Shown here one piece after another: positions 36,394 to 49,096 of a stretch of 64,000 bases of DNA. Source of the DNA: an uncultured Alphaproteobacteria bacterium (GTDB lineage: Bacteria > Pseudomonadota > Alphaproteobacteria > RF32 > CAG-239); the NCBI GenBank assembly GCA_944393175.1, contig CALXZH010000031.1, positions 1 through 64,000 on the forward strand, read 5' to 3'. A model generated the notes under the pieces. It saw only the letters and a program-made list of their open reading frames with translations. It was not told where the DNA came from and did no database searches. Positions within the stretch are counted from its first letter, which is position 1; each line of letters begins with the position of its first letter. The translations under genes and the position numbers were made by a program.

Positions 36394-36825
36394 TTAATCT
36401 TCATCTTTATCGGGGAAAATTTGTTCCATTAAGTAGGAAAATAATTTTTCAAATGTTTCGAACTCTTGGCGGGAGCGGAGATTAATGCGGTCGGCTAAGG
36501 CATAGTAATTGCCTCTTTTGTCGTAATAAATCAGACTCTCATTCCAATTTCCCAATACTAGCTTGTTATTGAAGAAATTATAATCTTTGAAATTTTGATT
36601 TACTTCTTGTAGAGATGGATATTTATAGTTTTTATTTTCTCGATAGTGGGAGCTGCAACCATATAAATTTAATCCATTATAACTACATCCGTTGCTGTAT
36701 CTTAAAAATTTCTCATATTCTTCAGGTATGGCACAAAATTTTGCCATTAGAAGCCAGGTGTTGGTGGTTTCTATTTCCGGAGATACCGCTGGGGAAAATT
36801 TAATAAACGGCAAATTTTCAATCAT
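36394..36825 (-). CDS. SUKH/YrhA-family protein, putative immunity to the HNH toxin
   Basis: A 143-residue soluble protein of the SMI1/KNR4 (SUKH) superfamily. The ATG at 36825 is preferred to a TTG at 36843 since AAGGAA sits 9 nt before it. The family core is seen as CAIPEEYEKFLRYSNGCSYNGLNLYG (written in parts: IPEEYEKFLRYSNG, then NGLNLYG), followed by NKLVLGNWNESLIYYDKRGN. SUKH proteins are common immunity proteins that bind and block nuclease toxins. It overlaps the 3' end of the HNH gene by 8 nt, the classical toxin-immunity order. Specific pairing is inferred from position. Confidence 0.8.
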   Translation of the reverse strand: MIENLPFIKFSPAVSPEIETTNTWLLMAKFCAIPEEYEKFLRYSNGCSYNGLNLYGCSSHYRENKNYKYPSLQEVNQNFKDYNFFNNKLVLGNWNESLIYYDKRGNYYALADRINLRSRQEFETFEKLFSYLMEQIFPDKDED

Positions 36826-37426
36826 GACATATCTTTCCTTCAAATATGGGAATAAATAATTGTCGATGTTCTTTCAAAAAATTAGAGTTTAGTTGCAAAT
36901 CAATTATTTTATGGAGATTTTCATGTGTGGGATGTGTTCTTATCAGGCTTAAATTGGTTAGTTCGGCTCTACCTCCAAAATCAAACGGAATTTTTATGTG
37001 TACACTGAAGTTTTCGGGTGTAATCCCTTGTTTTAGCAAATTTATATCTTGAAAGTTTAATCCAACCGTTTTGCAGCTGTATTCATTTGTGTACGCTAGG
37101 CGTTTTAAAAATATTGCGCGGAGTTGGGTGATATCTTGATAATATTTGTCTTGTTCTTGCCAAGTTTGGGGGTTATAGGGACAAAGTTTGAGTTTAAATG
37201 TCGTGAGCTTAAATTCTTTTAATTTTCTTTGCAGGCGATTTTCCATATCTTCTATGTTTTGTCGGTTCTGCAATATTTGGTAGGAAGGTGCATCCTTAAA
37301 AGGTTGCGGTGAGGGGGATAAGCCTTTATTTAATATATCATCATAGGCGCAAAGAAGGGAGGAGTCTTCATCATACAAGGGAAGTGTCAATCCGTTTTGA
37401 TGTTTTTGATTTGACCACTCCCACAT
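36818..37426 (-). CDS. HNH-type nuclease-like protein, putative secreted toxin
   Basis: A 202-residue protein without signal peptide. The C-terminal part reads VHIKIPFDFGG (His near 143), LTNLSLIRTHP (Asn near 156) and HENLHKIIDLQ (His at about 168 and 172): the spacing and residues of HNH/treble-clef endonucleases. In most, the first His is preceded by another His or Asp, here Val. The first 130 residues are helical and may serve delivery. AGGAG overlaps the stop of the coupling ATPase gene and the ATG lies 9 nt after that stop, so both are one translational unit. A SUKH immunity-like gene overlaps its end. It is best read as an anti-bacterial DNase toxin carried with a type IV coupling protein; no proof of secretion. 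Confidence 0.7.
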   Translation of the reverse strand: MWEWSNQKHQNGLTLPLYDEDSSLLCAYDDILNKGLSPSPQPFKDAPSYQILQNRQNIEDMENRLQRKLKEFKLTTFKLKLCPYNPQTWQEQDKYYQDITQLRAIFLKRLAYTNEYSCKTVGLNFQDINLLKQGITPENFSVHIKIPFDFGGRAELTNLSLIRTHPTHENLHKIIDLQLNSNFLKEHRQLFIPIFEGKICHD

Positions 37427-37435
37427 CCTTTGCTC

Positions 37436-39679
37436 CTATTGATTTTGATTGGTGTCGTTTTCTATATCTTCTTCATTATAATCGTCTTCATCAAAATCTT
37501 CATCATCAAAGTCTTCGTTAGGATCATATTCTATTCCCAGTTTGGAGAGCATATCTTCATTGATGTCTTCTCGCTGGGCTACAATCCAATCCGGTACATA
37601 AGGTGAGGGTGGAAGTTTTGATAATGCCAGCATTTGCTTATCTAGATAAAAACGTGGTGCGTCTGCCATAATCGGACGATCAATAAAGCCTTGCATTAAA
37701 ACAACTTGTTTCAACATTGGCAAACTTAATAATTGCGTCGTGCTGATTACGGATGTTCCTTGCAATTGATAGCTGACGTTTTTACTGAAAGGATTAGAAC
37801 CTTTTTGGAAGCTAATGCCTTCATTTTTTGAGAATGAAGTGGTTTGTACAGTCTTGTTACCAATCATTTTTGAAAAGCGTTGAGCGGTTTGTTCGTTGTT
37901 TTGTGACAAAATAACCTTACAAGCCGTGGTAGATATTACTGTTTCCAAGTCATCTTTACCATATTTACCTGAAATTTGGCCTAGGTCTTGTCCTATCAGT
38001 AAGTATGATACTTTTTGACCACGTCCAACGGCTGGTCCATCAATGATGGCTTTTAGTTTAGGCATTTGCGGAAACTCGTCCAATACAAACAAGGTGGGGA
38101 ACGGTCCCATTTGACCGTCGGTCTTGTTTTGAAATTTTGGCGGGTTGGCAATTAAATATGAGGACATTAACTCAATAAAAGTTCCTGAAATTACACCTAA
38201 GGCTCGTGCATCAACCTGGTTAACGGACAGATAAACCGAAATTGGTTTCCATTCTCCCGTTATTGGGTCTTTCATACCGCGCAAATCCTTAAAGTGCAAA
38301 TCAGAAAAGCTGGTACGAGATACGACGGCCGAGTTCTTGAAAATACCAATACCGGCAAAACCGGTTGATAATACGGAGCCGCGCTCTTTATCCGGCATGG
38401 AGCTTAATTGGCTCAATTCTACGATACAACGCGGTGAGTAGCCGTATTTTCTTGCTTCTTCAATAGCTTCTTCCAACATATCACGCATCGGGTCAGCCAT
38501 CGCGGCCATTTGGTCGCCTTCATCCAAGCGGCGTTTTATGTCTTGCGATTGTTTAATTTGTGATTCCGTAATCCATTCCAAAATCATTGCCAAACAAGAT
38601 TCATGACCAATCCACTTTTCAGGTAGCAATGACCAGGTTCCGATTGGAAGGTAGTTATCAATGGTTAAGGTGTCGCTATGCAGATTTTGAATGGCTTTGG
38701 CAGCCATCGGATCTCTCATTTCCAGATAATAGCCTTCCAACACTCTTTTATCTTCTTCATCGAGTTTACCTTCATAAACACGACCGATAAAATAGTCGTT
38801 GGCGCGCGCTCTTTCACATTTTGATGCAATGAAATGTATGAAACCCGTTAGAGCTGCACGACCGGTCTTTGACCAGTGAGGATCTGCTCCGCCTTTCGGA
38901 TCTTCTACCAAAATGTTACACATGGAATCAACATACATATCACGGTCAGGTCCGGGAGCCGGTAAAGCATTCGGCGACAGCGGATTCCAGCTCGGGTAAT
39001 AGATACCTTCGGCCGGATTATCTTCGGCACCCCAGTTAATGACAAATACAGGACCATCTTTTGCTCTTGCCCCGGTGGTGGTAAAGCATAGTTCAGGTTT
39101 TGGGTCGTTTACCACAATACTTAAACCGTGAGAGTGAAATATTGTCGGAATAACCACTCCGGCAGTTTTACCGGTTCCCGGAGGTGCACAGCACAGTGTG
39201 GACAGTGTCTCTTTTAACATTAATAAATGGCCTTTGTATTTACCGACAACCATGCAAAAGCCGTCTAATAATCCCATTTTCTTAATGTCTTTTAATTCAG
39301 CCAGTCGTGCCGAACCATGAATGTTTGATTGAAATCTATACGGATTTGACAGTGTTCCGACAACAATACCGAAAGGAAGTGAAATGAAAGGGAGAATCGG
39401 AAGCCATAATCCGATGGAAAAGGCTCCGTGGTAATTGGATATTTGTTTTATCCAATTCCAGTATCTGGAAAAAAGGTAATTGGGGGATTCCCAAATCGTT
39501 TGCAAAAATTTTCCGACTTCATTTAATGTGTCTTTGGAAACGCCACTGCCGATTAGGTAGCCTAAAGGCATGGATATTACCGCTAAAACGGCCGTGACCA
39601 AAAACGTGATAAGGAAAGTCAGAATTATCCACTGAACGGCATTATTATATTCTTCCCATTCTTCGCCTTTTTTTTCCAT
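37436..39679 (-). CDS. type IV secretion coupling ATPase (TraG/VirD4 family)
   Basis: A 747-residue hexameric ATPase of the inner membrane that selects substrates for type IV secretion. Residues about 15-40 and 82-110 form membrane helices with a small periplasmic loop. Then come the strand NIHGSARLAELKDIKKMGLL, Walker A APPGTGKTAG near residue 168, and VNDPKPEL. The all-alpha domain follows (about 250-420), and Walker B FVLDEFPQMPKL near 530. LIGQDLGQISGKYG and ACKVILSQNNEQTAQRFS complete the RecA fold. The C-terminus is very acidic (EDFDDEDFDEDDYNEED), a common site for adaptor or effector binding. Four unrecognised genes lie upstream and an HNH-SUKH pair lies directly downstream. Confidence 0.92.
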   Translation of the reverse strand: MEKKGEEWEEYNNAVQWIILTFLITFLVTAVLAVISMPLGYLIGSGVSKDTLNEVGKFLQTIWESPNYLFSRYWNWIKQISNYHGAFSIGLWLPILPFISLPFGIVVGTLSNPYRFQSNIHGSARLAELKDIKKMGLLDGFCMVVGKYKGHLLMLKETLSTLCCAPPGTGKTAGVVIPTIFHSHGLSIVVNDPKPELCFTTTGARAKDGPVFVINWGAEDNPAEGIYYPSWNPLSPNALPAPGPDRDMYVDSMCNILVEDPKGGADPHWSKTGRAALTGFIHFIASKCERARANDYFIGRVYEGKLDEEDKRVLEGYYLEMRDPMAAKAIQNLHSDTLTIDNYLPIGTWSLLPEKWIGHESCLAMILEWITESQIKQSQDIKRRLDEGDQMAAMADPMRDMLEEAIEEARKYGYSPRCIVELSQLSSMPDKERGSVLSTGFAGIGIFKNSAVVSRTSFSDLHFKDLRGMKDPITGEWKPISVYLSVNQVDARALGVISGTFIELMSSYLIANPPKFQNKTDGQMGPFPTLFVLDEFPQMPKLKAIIDGPAVGRGQKVSYLLIGQDLGQISGKYGKDDLETVISTTACKVILSQNNEQTAQRFSKMIGNKTVQTTSFSKNEGISFQKGSNPFSKNVSYQLQGTSVISTTQLLSLPMLKQVVLMQGFIDRPIMADAPRFYLDKQMLALSKLPPSPYVPDWIVAQREDINEDMLSKLGIEYDPNEDFDDEDFDEDDYNEEDIENDTNQNQ

Positions 39680-39696: not shown

Positions 39697-41010
39697 CTAT
39701 TTTATATTGCGAATTAATTTTTTTACTTTTTCAAACTTGTCTTTGTCAATCCGAGGATCTGCCTCTTCTAACGTTTTGGCAAAGAGTTTGATTTCTCTTG
39801 GTGTGCCTCGATCTATACGTGTGACGTTAATTTTCATTTCGTCCCAGATTTCAAACATATCTTCAGCGTTTATGATGTTTCCAAGCTGAATGATTACATA
39901 AGGGGTAATTGTGAATTTTAAATCGGCTTCTTTTAATTTCTCCTCCAATGTCTGACAGGACAAAGCAATCTTTCTCACAGGCGATATGCGATGGCTGCTT
40001 TCTGAAAACCATAATGGTTCTTCATCGTTAAATCTTTCTTCATCGGCCAGCCAGTCTCCGGGTTCCTTATCAACTAAGCAAACGCAAAGCTGTTTGTCAC
40101 CAACGCCTATGAAATCTATCAGATTATTATTGAGTGTAACACCTGTAATAATTTCATAGCCTTTTTGCTTGAGTATGTCAATTATGGAGCCGTTATGTTG
40201 TGCGTTTTGAGGCGTATCTCCTCTGTTTTGCGGCTTTTTGTTATCTCTGTTATTGGCGTTTTTGTTAAAGTCTTTCTTTTCCCTGATGGGCTTATTGGTT
40301 TGAAAATCTTTGTTTTTGTCTCGCGGCGGAGTCTTGTCTTCTTTGGCCGCAGTGTCTTTTTGGGCAGGTGTGCTCGGAGTATCAAATGCATCAAAATTGA
40401 AATCGAAGTCATCACTTTCGCCATCGTCAAATTGGAACAAGGAATGCTCAAAACTAGAAGACTCGGTTGCGCTCGGGGCACTTAAAACTGACGGCTTGGG
40501 CGTGGTATTAACCAACGGAGCTTTTGCTTTGGGCGAAATTTGGTTGCTCAAAACAGTCGCTCGCGGCAGTACATCTTCTATTCGTTCGTCTATCGGCGCT
40601 CTTATGCTGCGCGGCCTGATTTCTTTGTATGACTTTTTTTTGCGGACGGGTTGTCCGGTTTTTTTGGTGGTAATTACCTTAACCTGCTTATAAAAAATCT
40701 TGCGAAACAGCTTTAACGGATAAAGAACAATTTTTACCAAAATTTTATCCCAAGCTATTAAGCTCAAAGCTGCCCAGCCGGTTAGCCATAAGGGTATGAA
40801 CGTTAATATAATTAATATAAAGGCCCATTCTTTGGGAGCTTGTATCGTCCAGCCTTGATACCAAAGATTATACAGGTGTTCCCAGTGGCGAGAGCGAAAA
40901 ATATCAAAATGCCAGTTGGTGAGCATAATAACCCTTATCCCTTCCAGAAAAAATATGCTCCAGAAGATACCGACAAATATTATGCGAATGGTTATCAATA
41001 AGGGTTTCAC
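39697..41010 (-). CDS. membrane protein with disordered linker and C-terminal domain, coupling-complex candidate
   Basis: A 437-residue protein: two membrane helices at residues about 5-27 and 62-88, a long low-complexity linker (about 110-270, rich in Pro, Lys, Asp, Asn) and a folded C-terminal domain of about 160 residues (SIIDILKQKGYEIITGVTL, EDMFEIWDEMKINVTRI). The helix region matches that of the 41069-41572 gene: W then F, a short loop with W, and IPLWLTGW against IPVWIMGW. It is 17 nt upstream of the coupling ATPase and so probably part of the same complex. The C-terminal domain has a restriction-enzyme-like look (DKQLCVCLVD strand) but no catalytic motif was verified. Confidence 0.65.
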   Translation of the reverse strand: MKPLLITIRIIFVGIFWSIFFLEGIRVIMLTNWHFDIFRSRHWEHLYNLWYQGWTIQAPKEWAFILIILTFIPLWLTGWAALSLIAWDKILVKIVLYPLKLFRKIFYKQVKVITTKKTGQPVRKKKSYKEIRPRSIRAPIDERIEDVLPRATVLSNQISPKAKAPLVNTTPKPSVLSAPSATESSSFEHSLFQFDDGESDDFDFNFDAFDTPSTPAQKDTAAKEDKTPPRDKNKDFQTNKPIREKKDFNKNANNRDNKKPQNRGDTPQNAQHNGSIIDILKQKGYEIITGVTLNNNLIDFIGVGDKQLCVCLVDKEPGDWLADEERFNDEEPLWFSESSHRISPVRKIALSCQTLEEKLKEADLKFTITPYVIIQLGNIINAEDMFEIWDEMKINVTRIDRGTPREIKLFAKTLEEADPRIDKDKFEKVKKLIRNIK

Positions 41011-41068
41011 AGATTCTTTTCTCCGCTGATTCTTTTTTGCTTCAGTTTACACTTTAATGGTTAATTCT

Positions 41069-41572
41069 TTATTTAAGCTTTTTGCCCTCAAATCTTTCTT
41101 TTAGGCTTTCTCTCAGAACTTCTGAGGTCTTTTCTTTCTTTTCCATGTCGTCTTTAATTGTCTTTAGCTTGTTTTCAATAAATTCATTCGGGTCGATTTT
41201 TTTGCCAGTGGTGCCCATATTTTTTAAGACAATGCGTGAGGCTGCTTGTCCGTATTTGGCTAATTTCTTGTTGTTATACCAAAGTATCGGAGCAAGAAGA
41301 ATAGCTACAAAATTTCTATGATATAAATATTTCCAGCCCATTATCCAGACAGGAATTATCAGTAGCAATGTAATGAAAAAACAATAGTCTTTAAATTGTT
41401 TAATTGAGCCGCCTTGCTCCCAGTAGGCCGAAATGATATTCCAATCGCTGGCGGATAAATAATTAAAATTCCAAGCAGATGCCATTAAAAACAGACTGGC
41501 ATATAAATAAATATATGTCCAGACTGCTCCAATGAGTATAAATTTTGAAATTTTTAATATTTTTTTTAACAT
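41069..41572 (-). CDS. two-helix membrane protein, paralogous to the next gene's membrane domain
   Basis: A 167-residue protein. Helices at residues about 10-32 and 63-82 flank a loop containing AYWEQGGSIKQFKDY, like LWYQGWTIQAPKEW in the 437-aa protein. A basic, helical cytoplasmic tail follows (LKTIKDDMEKKEKTSEVLRE). The ATG touches the stop of the 494-aa gene upstream. It lies in the coupling ATPase gene block, so a role in that complex is likely but the exact one is not known. Confidence 0.6.
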   Translation of the reverse strand: MLKKILKISKFILIGAVWTYIYLYASLFLMASAWNFNYLSASDWNIISAYWEQGGSIKQFKDYCFFITLLLIIPVWIMGWKYLYHRNFVAILLAPILWYNNKKLAKYGQAASRIVLKNMGTTGKKIDPNEFIENKLKTIKDDMEKKEKTSEVLRESLKERFEGKKLK

Positions 41573-43057
41573 TTATTTGGTCGCACTCCGTTGCTGTAAA
41601 GCTAAGCGGTATGAGTCCATTGTCAGGCCGTGCTGCGGCTTATTTTGTGTCGCTTGTCGCTGTTGTTGAGCTTGGAGCTGTCCTTGTCGGTCGCCGGCAA
41701 TTCTTCCTTGGGGATTGATACGACTTTGGATGGATTCTCTATAATTGCTTCTTATGCGTTGTCTGAAATTTCTTCTTCTTGCTTCATAATTATCATTTCT
41801 TGCCTCTAAAGTGGCGCTGCTCCCCCTCATCTTATTTAATTTATCGGTTATAGCTAAATCAAAGTTGTTGGACGCAACTAAGTGTTCCAGCATACTTTGA
41901 GGTTCTAACCGTTCAGGCTGCGTAATGTTGTCTTGCTTGAGGCTTAATCTGTCGTTAATTTTATGCAGAGTTTTATTCGTATTGCCTTTTTTCCCTGCTT
42001 CATCAAATTTGTGTTTTTTGTATTGTTTATCGGTGAACTTGTTGGCATCAGTGACGTCGTCGGTTAAGTTTTTGAGGAATTTTGCCGGATCTTTTCCTTG
42101 TTTTTCACAGCTGTCCATCTTGCGGGCTATGGCTATGGCGTTGCGTTTGGTGAGGGCTTCATATAATTGAGCCGTATTCGTATTTTTGAACACATCTTGA
42201 TTCATGCAGATGCTCTCACCCATTTGCGCGCGAGCCAGTTGTCCGGCCACAAACTGTATTGTTTTCATGTTTTCGGCCAGATTTTCAATCATGACTTTGG
42301 CTTGTTGACAAAAAGCTTGGCGTTTATCTTCGGAGAGCTCATTCATCAATATTTTGGTACATTCTGTGGCTTTTGAACCGTCTATGTTACCCGCCATAAT
42401 CGCATCTAATGTTGCTTTTACGCCATCGCGCCCCTTTTCGATTGAGGCTTTGGAACCGTCATACATTTTGACGGCTTTGTCATCAATGTTATTGCGGGTG
42501 GTGATGGTGTTATATTCGGCATTTTCACGTTTTTTGGCATCATTTTTGGCCTGAGCACAACGATTTTTAAAAGCTTGCCCAAATTGATCAATCTTTTTGT
42601 AGGTTTTTTTATACAACCAGTTGGCTCCGCCTAACAGCCAGTCGTTATACATGTAGTCAATGATGTCTTGTTCTTTAAAGAGGTCTTTGGGTTCTTCATC
42701 AGAAGGGCCGACTTTGGTTCCGTCTTCAGGTGTGACTTCACCTTCGTTACCGTCTTTACCTTGAGAAAGCTGATCTTTTAGGTCTTCTTTTAATTTCCGT
42801 TCGTCAGGGGTTAAAATGCCTCTCTTTTCTTTGATATTAAGGTAATTTAGTTTTTGGGCAACAGTCATACCATCAAAAGCTTGAGATTCCTTTTTAGGAT
42901 TTTGAGAGAGCGCAACAGTCTTTTGCGGCTCCTGTTTTTGAGCTTGAGGCGTGGGTTGGGTGTGTGTCGGCTGCTGTTGACTTGGTTGCTGAACAGCTTG
43001 CGGTTGCGGCTTGGGTGCAGCTTCGTTAATTTTTGCAACTTTAGGAGTATCAACCAT
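41573..43057 (-). CDS. 494-aa soluble protein with Gln/Pro-rich N-terminus
   Basis: Unrecognised. Residues about 1-60 are Pro/Gln-rich and disordered (PQPQAVQQPSQQQPTHTQP). The middle is helical and charged with conserved-looking Cys residues (KNRCAQ, ATECTK, QAFCQQ, SICMNQ, DSCEKQ). The C-terminus is again Arg/Gln-rich (NFRQRIRSNYRESIQSR, GQLQAQQQRQATQ). No signal peptide or membrane helix. The composition resembles substrates or adaptors of type IV systems. It precedes the two membrane protein genes with no gap. Confidence 0.6.
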   Translation of the reverse strand: MVDTPKVAKINEAAPKPQPQAVQQPSQQQPTHTQPTPQAQKQEPQKTVALSQNPKKESQAFDGMTVAQKLNYLNIKEKRGILTPDERKLKEDLKDQLSQGKDGNEGEVTPEDGTKVGPSDEEPKDLFKEQDIIDYMYNDWLLGGANWLYKKTYKKIDQFGQAFKNRCAQAKNDAKKRENAEYNTITTRNNIDDKAVKMYDGSKASIEKGRDGVKATLDAIMAGNIDGSKATECTKILMNELSEDKRQAFCQQAKVMIENLAENMKTIQFVAGQLARAQMGESICMNQDVFKNTNTAQLYEALTKRNAIAIARKMDSCEKQGKDPAKFLKNLTDDVTDANKFTDKQYKKHKFDEAGKKGNTNKTLHKINDRLSLKQDNITQPERLEPQSMLEHLVASNNFDLAITDKLNKMRGSSATLEARNDNYEARRRNFRQRIRSNYRESIQSRINPQGRIAGDRQGQLQAQQQRQATQNKPQHGLTMDSYRLALQQRSATK

Positions 43058-43141
43058 GATATTTACCTTCTAATAACTTGATTCTATTGTGTTTAGTCTA
43101 GCATAAAAATTTGTTTTTGTCTATATTTTTGTAAAAATAGA

Positions 43142-44179
43142 CTATACTTTTAATTTTTTTATAAATTCTCCGATTTCACGATTTACGCGAATACCGTCTT
43201 GCGGGGTGACTTTAATTAACCCAAACAGACGAGGTTTAATTTTGTTTATTTCTATCGGCGCGAAAGTTGCCGGGTTGGTGGTAAGGACTTTATAGGCTCC
43301 CTCGGCATCTTTGTTGGATGTTTTGAAAAAGTTTTTTACCAAACGTTCGGCATCTATCGGAAATTCTTTTTTCTTGATGGCTTCAATATATTTTTTTGTG
43401 CGTTCGACGCGTGCTTGGTGCTCCTCATAGATTTCTTTTTCGATTTTTCTTTTTTCGGCTTTTAGTTTACGCGCTTCATATTGAATATCACAGCCTTCCA
43501 TTTCAATTAAGATTTCTACATAAGAAATTATAGCCAACTGCAGATTGTCATCTTTAGCGCTTTCGGCAAAGTCCAATAGTTCATCGTCTGTTCCGGCAGG
43601 ATTAAGCGTTTGTAACTCTTGCGGGAAGACTTGCAACATTATGTCCCAGCCTTCCATAATTTCTTTGGAAATGCGAATGCCAAGCCGCGGTTTGTAGTGA
43701 GGATAAAACTTTTGTGCAGTGAGTGAAGGTGATAGTGGCGTGATGTTATGGGTTTCGGCAATCGTGCGAACCGCAAAAAAGTAGTTTTGATAGGCGCGAT
43801 ATAAAGATTTTTCCGGATCAGTTAAAAGAGATGAATTTTCTTCGTCGGAGTTGCTGATGGGAAGGGAAGAGGACATTTCAACTTCTTGTCCGTCTTGAAT
43901 GTTGTCAACAACTTCTTGAGCATCATCAAGTTCTGCATTGATAAACTCATTTAGCAAACGTTCAAATTCATCATCATCAGAGGATGCTTGGGTGCTGGTT
44001 TTGTCGGGCGCAGGCTGTGCGGAGGTGTTTGGTTGAGCATCTTCTGCCAATAACGCTTTAATATCAGCCTCGGTTGTGTCGGATACAGGCATTGACTGCG
44101 GAATTTTTTTGTTTTGAGATATAGGGCGTTTGTGTTTTATCTTTTTCAAGACTTTCCCATTTTTTTTGTTCTCATTCAT
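43142..44179 (-). CDS. 345-aa charged protein at the head of the coupling-ATPase block
   Basis: Unrecognised. A basic N-terminus (KKIKHKRPISQNKK) and an acidic, disordered linker (SSDDDEFERLLNEF, ELDDAQEVVDNIQDGQEVE) precede a helical domain. It also has a strongly charged coiled coil (ARKLKAEKRKIEKEIYEEHQ) near residues 240-262. Start ATG is preceded by AGGGATACCGAA. A gap of 84 nt with an AT-rich hairpin separates it from the next gene, so it may be a separate transcript. Confidence 0.55.
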   Translation of the reverse strand: MNENKKNGKVLKKIKHKRPISQNKKIPQSMPVSDTTEADIKALLAEDAQPNTSAQPAPDKTSTQASSDDDEFERLLNEFINAELDDAQEVVDNIQDGQEVEMSSSLPISNSDEENSSLLTDPEKSLYRAYQNYFFAVRTIAETHNITPLSPSLTAQKFYPHYKPRLGIRISKEIMEGWDIMLQVFPQELQTLNPAGTDDELLDFAESAKDDNLQLAIISYVEILIEMEGCDIQYEARKLKAEKRKIEKEIYEEHQARVERTKKYIEAIKKKEFPIDAERLVKNFFKTSNKDAEGAYKVLTTNPATFAPIEINKIKPRLFGLIKVTPQDGIRVNREIGEFIKKLKV

Positions 44180-44195: not shown

Positions 44196-44477
44196 TTAAT
44201 TTAATTTAATTTCTTCTAAAACTTGGTTCGGGTCACGAATAATCATAATTTTGTCGGATTGTGAACCACCCCTAATCAATAAGTAAATATTTCCGTTTTC
44301 AACACTAAAAGAGGAAATTTCACTCCCAATTTCTTGTTTCAAATTAAGTCTTGTTTGTGTATTGGATTTTTGTTGCGTGGTCTTTTGGTAAAGTATGCCT
44401 AGAAGGCTTATACTTCCTATAACTAATAAGAAAGTGATGAAAAATACGATAGATTTTATTAATTTTAATTTATCCAT
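44196..44477 (-). CDS. small bitopic membrane protein upstream of rluD, DUF6476-like
   Basis: A 93-residue protein with one membrane helix (SIVFFITFLLVIGSISLLGI) and a C-terminal beta-rich domain (ISSFSVENGNIYLLIRGGSQ). In many Alphaproteobacteria a protein of this size and layout (DUF6476) lies divergent to rluD, as here, and that supports the call more than the sequence does. The stop codon lies in a pentanucleotide repeat (TTAAT)n at about 44193-44213. Function unknown. Confidence 0.6.
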   Translation of the reverse strand: MDKLKLIKSIVFFITFLLVIGSISLLGILYQKTTQQKSNTQTRLNLKQEIGSEISSFSVENGNIYLLIRGGSQSDKIMIIRDPNQVLEEIKLN

Positions 44478-46543: not shown

Positions 46544-46564
46544 CCCGCTTAGGCGGGCTTTTTT
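46544..46564 (+). terminator. intrinsic terminator of rpoH
   Basis: CCCGC (46544-46548) pairs with GCGGG (46553-46557), loop TTAG, then C and a T-run. Confidence 0.85.
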
Positions 46565-47069
46565 ATGCTTGCGGCTGCGAAGATATGGTTCCTCTGATGC
46601 CTTCTCCCCAATCTTGGGCCAGTTTGTCCAGTTGGCTATCAATCGTTTTTAATCTTTTTTGTGCCATTATTTTATAAATATAAATGAAGAGGTTGGGAAC
46701 TTCCAGATATACAATCAAACCTAGACCGGCAGAACCAAGCATTATAATCAAATTAAAGATGTCGCTGAAAATAAAAAAGGCATCTCTTACCGTAAAATTA
46801 CTTATAATGTGAAATAAATAGATAAATACGCCTGAGAGATTAAAACAGCCGACAATTACCAATTTGTTGGTATTGGTGCGGTCTGTTATCAGTACCGTAA
46901 AAGTCGGCAATAAACCTATCAGTAATACAACCATAACCGGAAGAGTGGTCATGACAGCTATTAATAAAGCCAAGATTAACAGAACTTTTTGCAACAGATT
47001 CAGACGAAATGTATCATTGCGTCTGAGCGGCGGATTGCGTAGTGGTCTTTGCGGAGGTACTTTACTCAT
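46563..47069 (-). CDS. four-helix membrane protein, 168 aa
   Basis: A basic Pro/Arg-rich N-terminus (PPQRPLRNPPLRRND) is followed by four hydrophobic helices (residues about 25-60, 70-92, 96-118, 118-136) and a short helical tail. It overlaps the pseudokinase gene by 4 nt (ATGA), so the two products are probably made in equal amounts and may work together in the membrane. No family is recognised. Confidence 0.65.
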   Translation of the reverse strand: MSKVPPQRPLRNPPLRRNDTFRLNLLQKVLLILALLIAVMTTLPVMVVLLIGLLPTFTVLITDRTNTNKLVIVGCFNLSGVFIYLFHIISNFTVRDAFFIFSDIFNLIIMLGSAGLGLIVYLEVPNLFIYIYKIMAQKRLKTIDSQLDKLAQDWGEGIRGTISSQPQA

Positions 47070-49096
47070 TTTAGTATCCAGTAAAAAAGGTTAAGGACAA
47101 ACGAAGCAATGAGAGTCAAAACGGCTAAGATATTTGCAAAACGCATGGCAACTTCTCTGGCTTCCTCGTCCCATTTTGCCGTATTGTTTTGAAGATTGTT
47201 TTTTTCACTTATCAATAAATTGGCCGTCTTTAAGGCGTTGGCGTAGTCGACGCTGTCTTTTTGTCTGGCTTCTTCGTTTTCAATTATTTCCGTAATCTCA
47301 TAGAGTTTACCGTTTTTGTGTATCTTGAGAACTTCTCGTTCCAAATATTTTTGATATTTAACGTTGTGGTAGCTCTTGATGGTCAGCATGCAGGCACTTA
47401 CCAGCCATTTTGCCAAATTAGGTAACTGAGTAGGTCCGTATTTGTTTTGCATATCCGTGTATAAGCGTAAAATTGCGCTGGCCTGCAGTGCTTCTCTTGA
47501 GGTGTTTAAGTCCGTTAATATTCCATCTATTTTTTTACCTAATTTGCAGCGTAAATATGCCATAATGTTGCGGTCGTAAGGCATAGAGGTTACTTTGTTG
47601 TGGGCATAATTATTGTCCAAGGCTCTTAGAATTCTGGGTGCGCTGTTTACAAATTCATCTCCCAGTAAAGGGCTGATGCAGGGTAAATCTTCGTCAAAGT
47701 CATACATGATACGATCTATTCCGTAGCCCATATCACGACGAGAAATGTAACTTTTGAATTCCCCGCTGTTAGACGGAGCTCTGATGTTTGTCTGTTCCTG
47801 ATACCAGAGTTTGAATAAGTCAGAATTTAGTAAGTCATAATATATATTTAAGCTTTCCTTATTTTTTATGGCCAAGAAAATAACTTTTGATACGGCATTG
47901 GGAAACAGCCATAGCGTCTTATATTTTATCGGCAAATGCGGCGCCAAAATAATACAAAGTTTTGATATGAGCAATTCTCGGCTGGCCGTATTATCTGAAT
48001 TGGTGTGAATCAATTTCTCAATTTGGGTGTTGAGTTTTTCATTCTCCAAGCCGTTTTTAATCCAGTCCGTAATTTTTCCGGATTTTAATAATTCGTATCC
48101 TTCTTCCGGATTTTGCAATAAAGCATAGGCTACTTCTGTCGGTGTATAGACTTTTTCACCTGAGATGGTTAATGATTTTTTCGGCCGTTCAGAATTGGAT
48201 GCAGGTGTGTTATTTGGTTTTCCTTCCAGTAGATTGTAGGCTTGCGTGTAGCTATAGCGCTCGTCTTCATCATCATTTAGAAGGCCTTTGAACAAGGTGG
48301 CATAGTGTGCAGATAATTTGTCTGTTCCTAAAAGTGTCGTGTAACTTCCTTTTTTTAATTTTAGGCGTAAAACTTCCATGTCTGAAAGGTCTTCCAGAAG
48401 TGGATGTCCAAGATATAACTGTAATGCAGTGACGCCAACGGCGTAAACATCGTTTTTATCTGTTCCGTTGCCACGGCCTTCTTTTTGAGCCATCAGGCTT
48501 TCTATGGTTTCGCTACAACCTGGTTGATAGTAGGCCGGAAAGGAGGCTATGCAATCGCCTAAAACCATATGCTCGCGCGCTTCATCTCGGTAATAAATAT
48601 TGCTTGCACGTATGGCGCGATGGGTAATGCCATAACCTTTAAGAACCTCAACCGCCGATAACATTGATAAAACTTCGGTTTTAAATTTTTCAGCTTGATT
48701 CTTGAGGCAATAGGCGCCTTGTTCGTCAATCACCCTGCCTCCGAGCGGCGTTTCATATATCAATGCCATATTACGGGAATTTTCTTTTGTATAACTGACA
48801 ACACCATATTCAACCAATTTCATAATAGCCGGGTGGTCAATCGATTTGAGATAGGGAAGCAAAGAACTGCGCGGCGATGTGAAGTTATTGCATATAAGTG
48901 CAAACAATTCTTTTTTATCATTGATTTTATCTTCAACTTTATATGCCTTGGCTCCGTTAGTGTCCAGCCATACCAAAGGAGCGGAAAAATCAATGGTGTA
49001 TCTTTCCTTGAGTACGTAGGTATGTTCTTTTTCAGTGACGGCAAAATTTTCTATTTCGCTTGTCTCCGGGGCCTGTTCTGCAGCTTCTTCAGTCAT
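47066..49096 (-). CDS. tail-anchored protein with degenerate kinase (pseudokinase) domain
   Basis: A 676-residue protein. Residues about 30-300 keep the order of a Ser/Thr kinase. The catalytic loop is HRAIRASNIYY (HRD changed to HRA, losing the catalytic Asp). The DFG position reads LGDCIAS, and NDVYAVGVTALQLYLGHPL matches the D-V-Y-S-x-G helix. The VAIK Lys also appears missing (LFALICN). The fold should thus be non-catalytic. The central part (about 320-620) is helical without known domain. The last 20 residues form a membrane helix (ILAVLTLIASFVLNLFYWIL), a tail anchor. Coupled to the four-helix protein gene by a 4-nt overlap. Confidence 0.75.
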   Translation of the reverse strand: MTEEAAEQAPETSEIENFAVTEKEHTYVLKERYTIDFSAPLVWLDTNGAKAYKVEDKINDKKELFALICNNFTSPRSSLLPYLKSIDHPAIMKLVEYGVVSYTKENSRNMALIYETPLGGRVIDEQGAYCLKNQAEKFKTEVLSMLSAVEVLKGYGITHRAIRASNIYYRDEAREHMVLGDCIASFPAYYQPGCSETIESLMAQKEGRGNGTDKNDVYAVGVTALQLYLGHPLLEDLSDMEVLRLKLKKGSYTTLLGTDKLSAHYATLFKGLLNDDEDERYSYTQAYNLLEGKPNNTPASNSERPKKSLTISGEKVYTPTEVAYALLQNPEEGYELLKSGKITDWIKNGLENEKLNTQIEKLIHTNSDNTASRELLISKLCIILAPHLPIKYKTLWLFPNAVSKVIFLAIKNKESLNIYYDLLNSDLFKLWYQEQTNIRAPSNSGEFKSYISRRDMGYGIDRIMYDFDEDLPCISPLLGDEFVNSAPRILRALDNNYAHNKVTSMPYDRNIMAYLRCKLGKKIDGILTDLNTSREALQASAILRLYTDMQNKYGPTQLPNLAKWLVSACMLTIKSYHNVKYQKYLEREVLKIHKNGKLYEITEIIENEEARQKDSVDYANALKTANLLISEKNNLQNNTAKWDEEAREVAMRFANILAVLTLIASFVLNLFYWILK

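What the first reader, a model, noticed from the sequence alone, without database searches (positions are those of the whole stretch)
39697..44179. Four unknown genes upstream of the coupling ATPase may form a new coupling or adaptor complex
Seen: a 345-aa charged protein, a 494-aa Gln/Pro-rich protein, and two membrane proteins lie directly upstream of the ATPase gene on the same strand with gaps from 0 to 84 nt. None looks like VirB, Trb or the known Dot/Icm adaptors I can recall. The ATPase has an unusually acidic C-terminal tail. Inference: this could be a divergent coupling complex (in the sense of DotL/DotM/DotN) peculiar to this lineage.
Basis: partly seen in the sequence, partly recalled or inferred. 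Interest (0 to 1): 0.65.

Follow-up and report, generated by a model that had tools for sequence, protein, structure and literature searches.

The report
New type IV secretion coupling gene module
Gut Alphaproteobacteria keep, next to the gene for the ATPase that feeds cargo into a type IV secretion machine, a fixed set of previously undescribed partner genes that track that machine across the class, so they probably form a new kind of cargo-loading complex.

Summary
In detail: A (345 aa), B (494), C (167) and D (437) precede a VirD4-type ATPase, here TCP, on the minus strand, with gaps of 0-84 nt. The order A-B-C-D-TCP is kept in every complete locus examined in the order, and TCP is in 118 of 125 genomes. 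Across the class, D is found almost only with one VirB4 subtype (20 of 22 against 1 of 363), and A only where the D/TCP system exists. Where A is unlinked from TCP it usually lies beside the tandem VirB6 array. D lies directly upstream of TCP in 54 of 59 loci. D is a two-TM protein with a degenerate NERD/PD-(D/E)XK-like domain; C is a D paralog that lost it; A is helical without known relatives; B is hypervariable. Two downstream genes belong to the wider module. No homology to DotM, DotN or IcmS/W was found. So: a non-homologous coupling module, analogous to the Dot/Icm coupling complex, in at least ten families. Physical assembly is inferred, not shown. Whether the window's own genome has the VirB core is unresolved, because 72 kb of it is withheld.

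The parts
43142..44179 (-). Gene A, 345 aa: cytosolic, low-confidence (probably disordered) N-terminus, conserved helical C-terminal part with one 60-residue helix
   Evidence: AlphaFold model pLDDT 81, all helical, no PDB fold match; no convincing Pfam or PDB profile hit; in 18/385 class genomes, 17 of them D+; beside the VirB6 array in most genomes where it is unlinked from TCP
41573..43057 (-). Gene B, 494 aa: Gln-rich, low-complexity N-terminus, hypervariable; its position in the operon is always occupied
   Evidence: 12-25% identity outside the closest relative against 37-53% for A and 46-62% for D in the order; two invariant residues only (GDIIxYM motif); no family hit
41069..41572 (-). 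Gene C, 167 aa: two-TM protein, paralog of D that lacks the NERD-like domain
   Evidence: hhalign C versus D N-terminus probability 98.8%, E 4e-17; full-length C with a remnant domain in L128, L130, L131
39697..41010 (-). Gene D, 437 aa (GTG start): two-TM N-terminus, long linker, C-terminal NERD/PD-(D/E)XK-like domain
   Evidence: Pfam NERD in 12/26 orthologs, best 2.7e-5; model abbbab; Foldseek top matches are mostly restriction-endonuclease-like folds at E 0.01-1; directly upstream of TCP in 54/59 loci
39700..40185 (-). D residues 276-437, degenerate nuclease-like domain with signature GDWLADEExFNxEEPLWFSExxHRxSPV
   Evidence: Alignment over ten families; no conserved (D/E)xK in the third strand
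37436..39679 (-). TCP, 747 aa VirD4-type coupling ATPase, two TM segments, Walker A GTGKT, Walker B DEF, acidic tail
   Evidence: PF02534 2e-55, PF12696 3e-23; 118/125 genomes of the order; motifs conserved
36818..37426 (-). Y202, 202 aa: module gene with an HNH-like motif (VHxKIPxDxGG..NL..HPxH..IH)
   Evidence: Directly after TCP in 29/59 loci and in all other families with a readable TCP locus; 44/125 genomes of the order; HNH assignment is motif-level only
36394..36843 (-). SUKH/SMI1-KNR4-like protein, 149 aa, overlapping Y202
   Evidence: SUKH Pfam models, below cut-off, in several members; PDB protein 2icg (Lin2918) E 0.008; travels with Y202
44196..44477 (-). X93, one-TM protein, weak DUF6476; neighbour of RluD, probably not part of the module
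   Evidence: not seen at D-TCP loci of families without the rpoH-RluD context

Best explanation
The operon encodes the coupling ATPase of a divergent P-type (VirB/D4-like) T4SS together with its dedicated accessory factors. Most likely mechanism: TCP, presumably a hexamer like other VirD4 proteins, sits in the inner membrane; D, anchored by its own TM pair, binds TCP and presents a catalytically dead NERD-like domain as a docking platform for substrates or adaptors, as DotM does for DotL; C is a truncated D copy that keeps only the membrane part; A is a soluble helical linker or chaperone between cargo, TCP and the VirB6 side of the channel; B is a fast-evolving partner, either a scaffold or a cargo-specific adaptor; the acidic TCP tail is a flexible tether. 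Shown: gene content, order, co-distribution with the T4SS, paralogy of C and D, likely domain type of D. Inferred: that the proteins assemble, that D's domain is inactive, and the role of each part.
For: TCP is a genuine VirD4-family ATPase. Order genomes carry a full P-type T4SS: VirB2, B3, B4 (TIGR00929 1e-108), tandem VirB6-like genes, two VirB8, VirB9, VirB10, VirB11, VirB4 in 105/125. Five-gene order fixed. D-TCP adjacency 54/59. D in 22 class genomes with strong scores, 20 of them with VirB4 of the same subtype (at least 52% identity); genomes with VirB4 at 44% or less lack D apart from one weak hit. A found only in genomes of this group and next to VirB6 arrays in families f23, f40, f70, f91 and f74. 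TCP module next to virB8-9-10 in G157 and D copies next to VirB6 in G128. NERD-like domain without the catalytic pattern. No plasmid match for D, no phage match for A.
Against: VirB4 was not found in 20/125 order genomes, most of which keep TCP, and VirB9 was also missing in ten of the twelve of those tested; either the island is lost there while TCP persists, or it is unbinned or withheld. The window's genome shows only scattered T4SS pieces (VirB8-like, VirB2-like), with 72 kb withheld. Co-occurrence counts are not corrected for shared ancestry. Linkage of A to TCP fails in several families.
Confidence: 0.72

Rival explanations
1. The module is a DNA-transfer or DNA-processing device: TCP pumps DNA and D and Y202 are active nucleases (NERD and HNH types), with SUKH as an inhibitor, e.g. 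for conjugation or DNA release or uptake.
For: D's domain belongs to a nuclease-related family; Y202 has an HNH-like motif and is paired with a SUKH gene, a family used as nuclease-toxin immunity (PMC3482391 and own knowledge); type IVB-pilus genes (PilN family) lie beside the VirB locus.
Against: No conserved (D/E)xK in D, and even the strand-2 Asp varies; the HNH assignment is motif-level; no relaxase was seen beside TCP but no dedicated search was made; chromosomal fixed site and near-universal distribution in the order.
Confidence: 0.12
2. An orphan, repurposed VirD4 machine that works without a T4SS channel in at least part of the lineage, the VirB association being ancestral.
For: The TCP gene is present in most of the 20 order genomes (of 125) where no VirB4 was found, some at 100% estimated completeness in 10-50 contigs.
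Against: The withheld stretch in G000 shows that absence can be artificial; VirB4 is present in all 16 genera; class-wide co-distribution.
Confidence: 0.1
3. A-D are unrelated housekeeping or membrane genes that happen to share a fixed neighbourhood with TCP.
For: In the order the whole rpoH-RluD region is syntenic, so adjacency alone is weak evidence.
Against: D-TCP adjacency persists in families with entirely different surroundings, and A lies beside VirB6 arrays elsewhere.
Confidence: 0.04

Closest known systems
Legionella Dot/Icm type IV coupling complex (DotL, DotM, DotN, DotY, DotZ, IcmSW, LvgA)
   Same: VirD4-type ATPase with a C-terminal tail, a partner with N-terminal TM helices and a cytosolic domain, several lineage-specific soluble partners (PMC7280309, PMC5802825)
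   Different: D's cytosolic domain models as NERD-like alpha/beta, DotM is all-alpha with three TM helices; no profile match to DotM, DotN, IcmS or IcmW; the accompanying machine is P-type VirB, not Dot/Icm
Rickettsiales vir homolog (rvh) T4SS with RvhD4
   Same: Alphaproteobacterial P-type T4SS with duplicated components (rvh: PMC11077975, PMC2653234)
NERD (nuclease-related domain) proteins, PF08378
   Same: D's C-terminal domain matches PF08378 in 12/26 orthologs and has the abbbab order
   Different: No conserved catalytic (D/E)xK; a new invariant motif; fused to a TM pair and tied to a T4CP
Other coupling-protein partners, e.g. CagF with Cag-beta in Helicobacter pylori
   Same: A partner that docks to a VirD4 homolog to recruit cargo (PMC12857230 proposes the subscript D4Aux for such proteins)
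   Different: No sequence relation seen; the partner here is membrane-anchored

Membership tests
VirD4/TraG type IV coupling protein | T4SS-DNA_transf (PF02534) and TraG-D_C domains | tested here: met
   2e-55 and 3.2e-23, far over cut-offs
VirD4/TraG type IV coupling protein | N-terminal TM segments, Walker A and Walker B | tested here: met
   TM 13-48 and 85-111; GTGKT in 56/56; Walker B found in 52/56 by a strict pattern, DEF invariant in alignment A7
Dot/Icm coupling complex | DotM homolog (all-helical cytosolic domain) | tested here: not met
   D profile finds no DotM chain in the PDB; D model alpha/beta, Foldseek top hits nuclease folds; DotM described as all-alpha in PMC5802825
Dot/Icm coupling complex | DotN and IcmS/W homologs | tested here: inconclusive
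   No hit for the A, B or Y202 profiles and none for the A model among the matches shown; Y202 and B were not modelled
Dot/Icm coupling complex | Partners bind the ATPase tail | not testable with these tools
   Needs multimer prediction or binding assays
P-type (VirB/D4) T4SS | VirB2-B4, B6, B8-B11 in the host lineage | tested here: met
   Found in relative G065; VirB4 in 105/125 order genomes
P-type (VirB/D4) T4SS | Core present in the window's own genome | tested here: inconclusive
   Not found in visible sequence but C32:1-72000 is withheld
NERD / PD-(D/E)XK nuclease | Fold | tested here: inconclusive
   Pfam best 2.7e-5 in an ortholog, window protein 0.0054 and below cut-off; Foldseek E 0.01-1 but repeatedly REase-type folds
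NERD / PD-(D/E)XK nuclease | Catalytic D..(D/E)xK residues | tested here: not met
   No invariant (D/E)xK; Asp of strand 2 replaced in several families
HNH nuclease (Y202) | HNH profile match | tested here: not met
   No Pfam HNH hit in 21 members; only a chance-level PDB match to a maturase C-terminus, E 1.2
Conjugation (MOB) system | Relaxase linked to the coupling protein | not tested
   No relaxase was recognised beside TCP in the loci read, but no dedicated relaxase search was made

The most novel reading that the evidence does not exclude
A second, independently evolved type IV coupling complex built from domesticated nuclease-type folds: a pseudo-NERD membrane adaptor (D, duplicated into C) plus an HNH-like/SUKH pair derived from a toxin-immunity couple, together with a hypervariable adaptor (B) that tunes cargo choice in gut commensals.
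Probability: 0.3. Interest if true: 0.78.

Novelty: new variant of a known kind. Interest (0 to 1): 0.6.

Why it matters
Coupling complexes decide what a T4SS secretes, yet the multi-subunit type is structurally known in detail essentially from Legionella. A conserved, non-homologous set of partners across at least ten alphaproteobacterial families, including common gut commensals, gives a second example in which to ask which parts of a coupling complex are essential, how adaptors evolve (here by duplication and loss of a nuclease-like domain), and what commensals secrete.

Tried and rejected
Homology to DotM, DotN, IcmS/W or any solved structure: profiles of A, B, D, Y202 and TCP, and the TCP sequence, against the PDB gave nothing meaningful; the TCP profile found no solved VirD4 homolog at E 0.001 either, so this search is not very sensitive. 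Hits of B to haemagglutinin HA2 are chance coiled coils. Pfam and NCBIfam scans of A, B, C: no family. A-model fold search: none below E 1. Mobile-element origin: no plasmid match for D, no phage match for A. A shared C-terminal 'GR' signal in B and Y202 was considered and dropped as inconsistent. Apparent loss of the T4SS from the window's genome was followed by taking its stretches; 72 kb reads as N, so no conclusion. Literature on this lineage's T4SS: none found. The idea that DotN is itself HNH-like could not be confirmed and is not used.

Full report
What is there. On the minus strand the window holds A (43142-44179), B (41573-43057), C (41069-41572), D (39697-41010) and TCP (37436-39679), with gaps of 84, 0, 58 and 17 nt. 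TCP is a VirD4/TraG-type coupling ATPase (PF02534 2e-55) with conserved Walker motifs and a conserved acidic tail. Immediately downstream are Y202 (36818-37426) and, overlapping it, a SUKH-like gene (36394-36843). One of the named relatives found is 'Azospirillum sp. CAG:239' (L038); the lineage is a group of small-genome Alphaproteobacteria known mostly from MAGs, many of them from animal guts.

Conservation in the order. TCP is in 118 of 125 genomes and all 16 genera of the order. In the MAG loci fetched by name (L033-L069, L071), A-B-C-D-TCP is the order in every complete locus, downstream of a rpoH-RluD-X93 block; B falls below phmmer detection in some genera but, where the locus is complete, an ORF of 437-755 aa fills its place. 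The other family of the order keeps the same arrangement (L075). Because the flanks are also syntenic, this alone does not prove a functional link.

Conservation beyond the order. A D profile finds 24 of 385 class genomes, 22 with strong scores in at least ten families. In nearly all, D lies directly upstream of TCP and Y202-SUKH directly downstream, in surroundings unlike the window's; over all loci D is adjacent in 54 of 59. The five exceptions are two loci with a short ORF in between (L135, L137), two second-type VirD4 paralogs (L073, L076) and a distant Telmatospirillum MAG (L072). The number of independent loci is smaller than 59, since some come from closely related MAGs and one is represented twice (L070/L127).

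Which secretion system. Relative G065 has one contig with VirB2 (two), VirB3, VirB4, tandem VirB6-like genes, two VirB8, VirB9 with a SPOR domain, a giant VirB10 with a beta-flower repeat protein beside it, VirB11, and then pil genes resembling the type IVB (PilN) set. VirB4 of this type is in 105 of 125 order genomes. In the class sample, 21 genomes have VirB4 at 52% identity or more; 20 of them have D, and the one without (G005) has A. Genomes with VirB4 at 44% or less have no D, except one weak hit in G158. Fisher's test gives 4e-30; shared ancestry is not corrected for, so the p-value overstates the independent support. A is in 18 genomes, all in the same group. Where A is not in the TCP operon it lies beside the tandem VirB6 array in G291, G147, G278, G375, G416 and G194 (four families), though not in G325 and G215; in f74 the joint module itself abuts the VirB6 array (L130, L131). 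In G157 SUKH-Y202-TCP-D is next to virB8-9-10, and in G128 three D-like genes abut the VirB6 array. This linkage in changing surroundings is the strongest evidence that the genes are T4SS components.

What the proteins are. D: two TM segments, a long linker, and a C-terminal domain that 12 of 26 orthologs match to NERD (best 2.7e-5), modelled as alpha-beta-beta-beta-alpha-beta; Foldseek's best matches, though weak (E 0.01-1), are repeatedly PD-(D/E)XK-type folds (R2 endonuclease domain, N.BspD6I, Card1, FokI). The model as a whole is of modest confidence (mean pLDDT 67, linker disordered); most blocks of the domain itself are at 74-91, with a dip near 50 at the conserved motif. The alignment has no conserved (D/E)xK but an invariant GDWLADEExFN...PLWFSE...SPV motif in most families, so loss of catalysis is the likelier reading; this is inference from sequence. 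C: its 107-residue N-terminal part is homologous to D (hhalign probability 98.8%, E 4e-17); in f51 and f74 the gene at C's position is a full-length D paralog with an eroded domain, so C arose by duplication and loss. A: a confident all-helical model with a 60-residue helix and no known fold relative. B: hypervariable, no TM segment, no family. Y202: a motif resembling HNH nucleases but no significant match. SUKH gene: several sub-threshold SUKH hits and a weak match to a solved protein of that type. SUKH proteins are known as immunity partners of toxins, hence the idea of a domesticated pair, which is only a lead; Y202 was found in just 44 of 125 order genomes, so it is not essential there.

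How it most likely works. By the usual definition a coupling complex is a VirD4 ATPase plus auxiliary proteins that recruit substrates (PMC12857230). D's fixed pairing with TCP and its membrane anchor make it the best candidate for a docking platform; C would be a membrane-only copy; A may connect cargo or TCP to the VirB6 side of the channel; B may be a cargo-specific or scaffolding element. Only gene content, order, co-distribution, paralogy and likely domain type are shown here; assembly and roles are inferred.

Compared with what is known. It resembles the Legionella coupling complex in plan, not in parts: DotM is all-helical with three TM segments (PMC5802825), and none of the profiles matched Dot/Icm subunits. 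It should not be called a Dot/Icm complex. The rvh system of Rickettsiales is a plausible relative of the VirB part, but rvh sequences were not compared directly.

Limits. No interaction test; genome names are hidden for most class genomes; 20 order genomes lacked VirB4 in the search, and the window's genome has 72 kb withheld (C32:1-72000), a stretch long enough to hold the VirB locus, which was left alone.

Noticed in passing
G000:C12:49577-51664 (L073:9527-11860); L076:9801-12869: A second VirD4 paralog (about 31-38% identical to TCP) in many order genomes, preceded in both loci read by a pentapeptide-repeat-like gene, as if each VirD4 had its own upstream partner.
   Followed up: partly
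G065:C8 about 1.8-59.8 kb (L092-L094): Divergent P-type T4SS with a very large VirB10 (open frame 1.2-2.4 kaa in relatives), a neighbouring protein full of beta-flower repeats, VirB9 with a SPOR domain, tandem VirB6-like genes, and type IVB-like pil genes next door.
   Followed up: partly
L141:9464-10582, L251:3123-4247, L252:1204-2289: In family f23 a second D paralog sits inside or beside what looks like the ATP synthase gene cluster.
   Followed up: no
window 46563-49096: A protein-kinase-like gene (676 aa, weakly resembles the MAD6 defence kinase model) and a 168-aa membrane protein next to rpoH are conserved with the operon in much of the order and in f51 (L128).
   Followed up: no
G000:C34:14389-15186; C29:3917-5149; C10:852-2201: Scattered T4SS-like genes in the window's own genome: a VirB8-like protein, a VirB2-like domain in a 410-aa protein, and a PilT-like ATPase.
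   Followed up: partly
G000:C32:1-72000: This stretch reads as N (withheld), so absence calls for the window's genome are unsafe.
   Followed up: no
window 41573-43057: Gene B evolves far faster than its neighbours (12-25% against 37-62% identity for A and D) while keeping its position and a GDIIxYM motif.
   Followed up: partly
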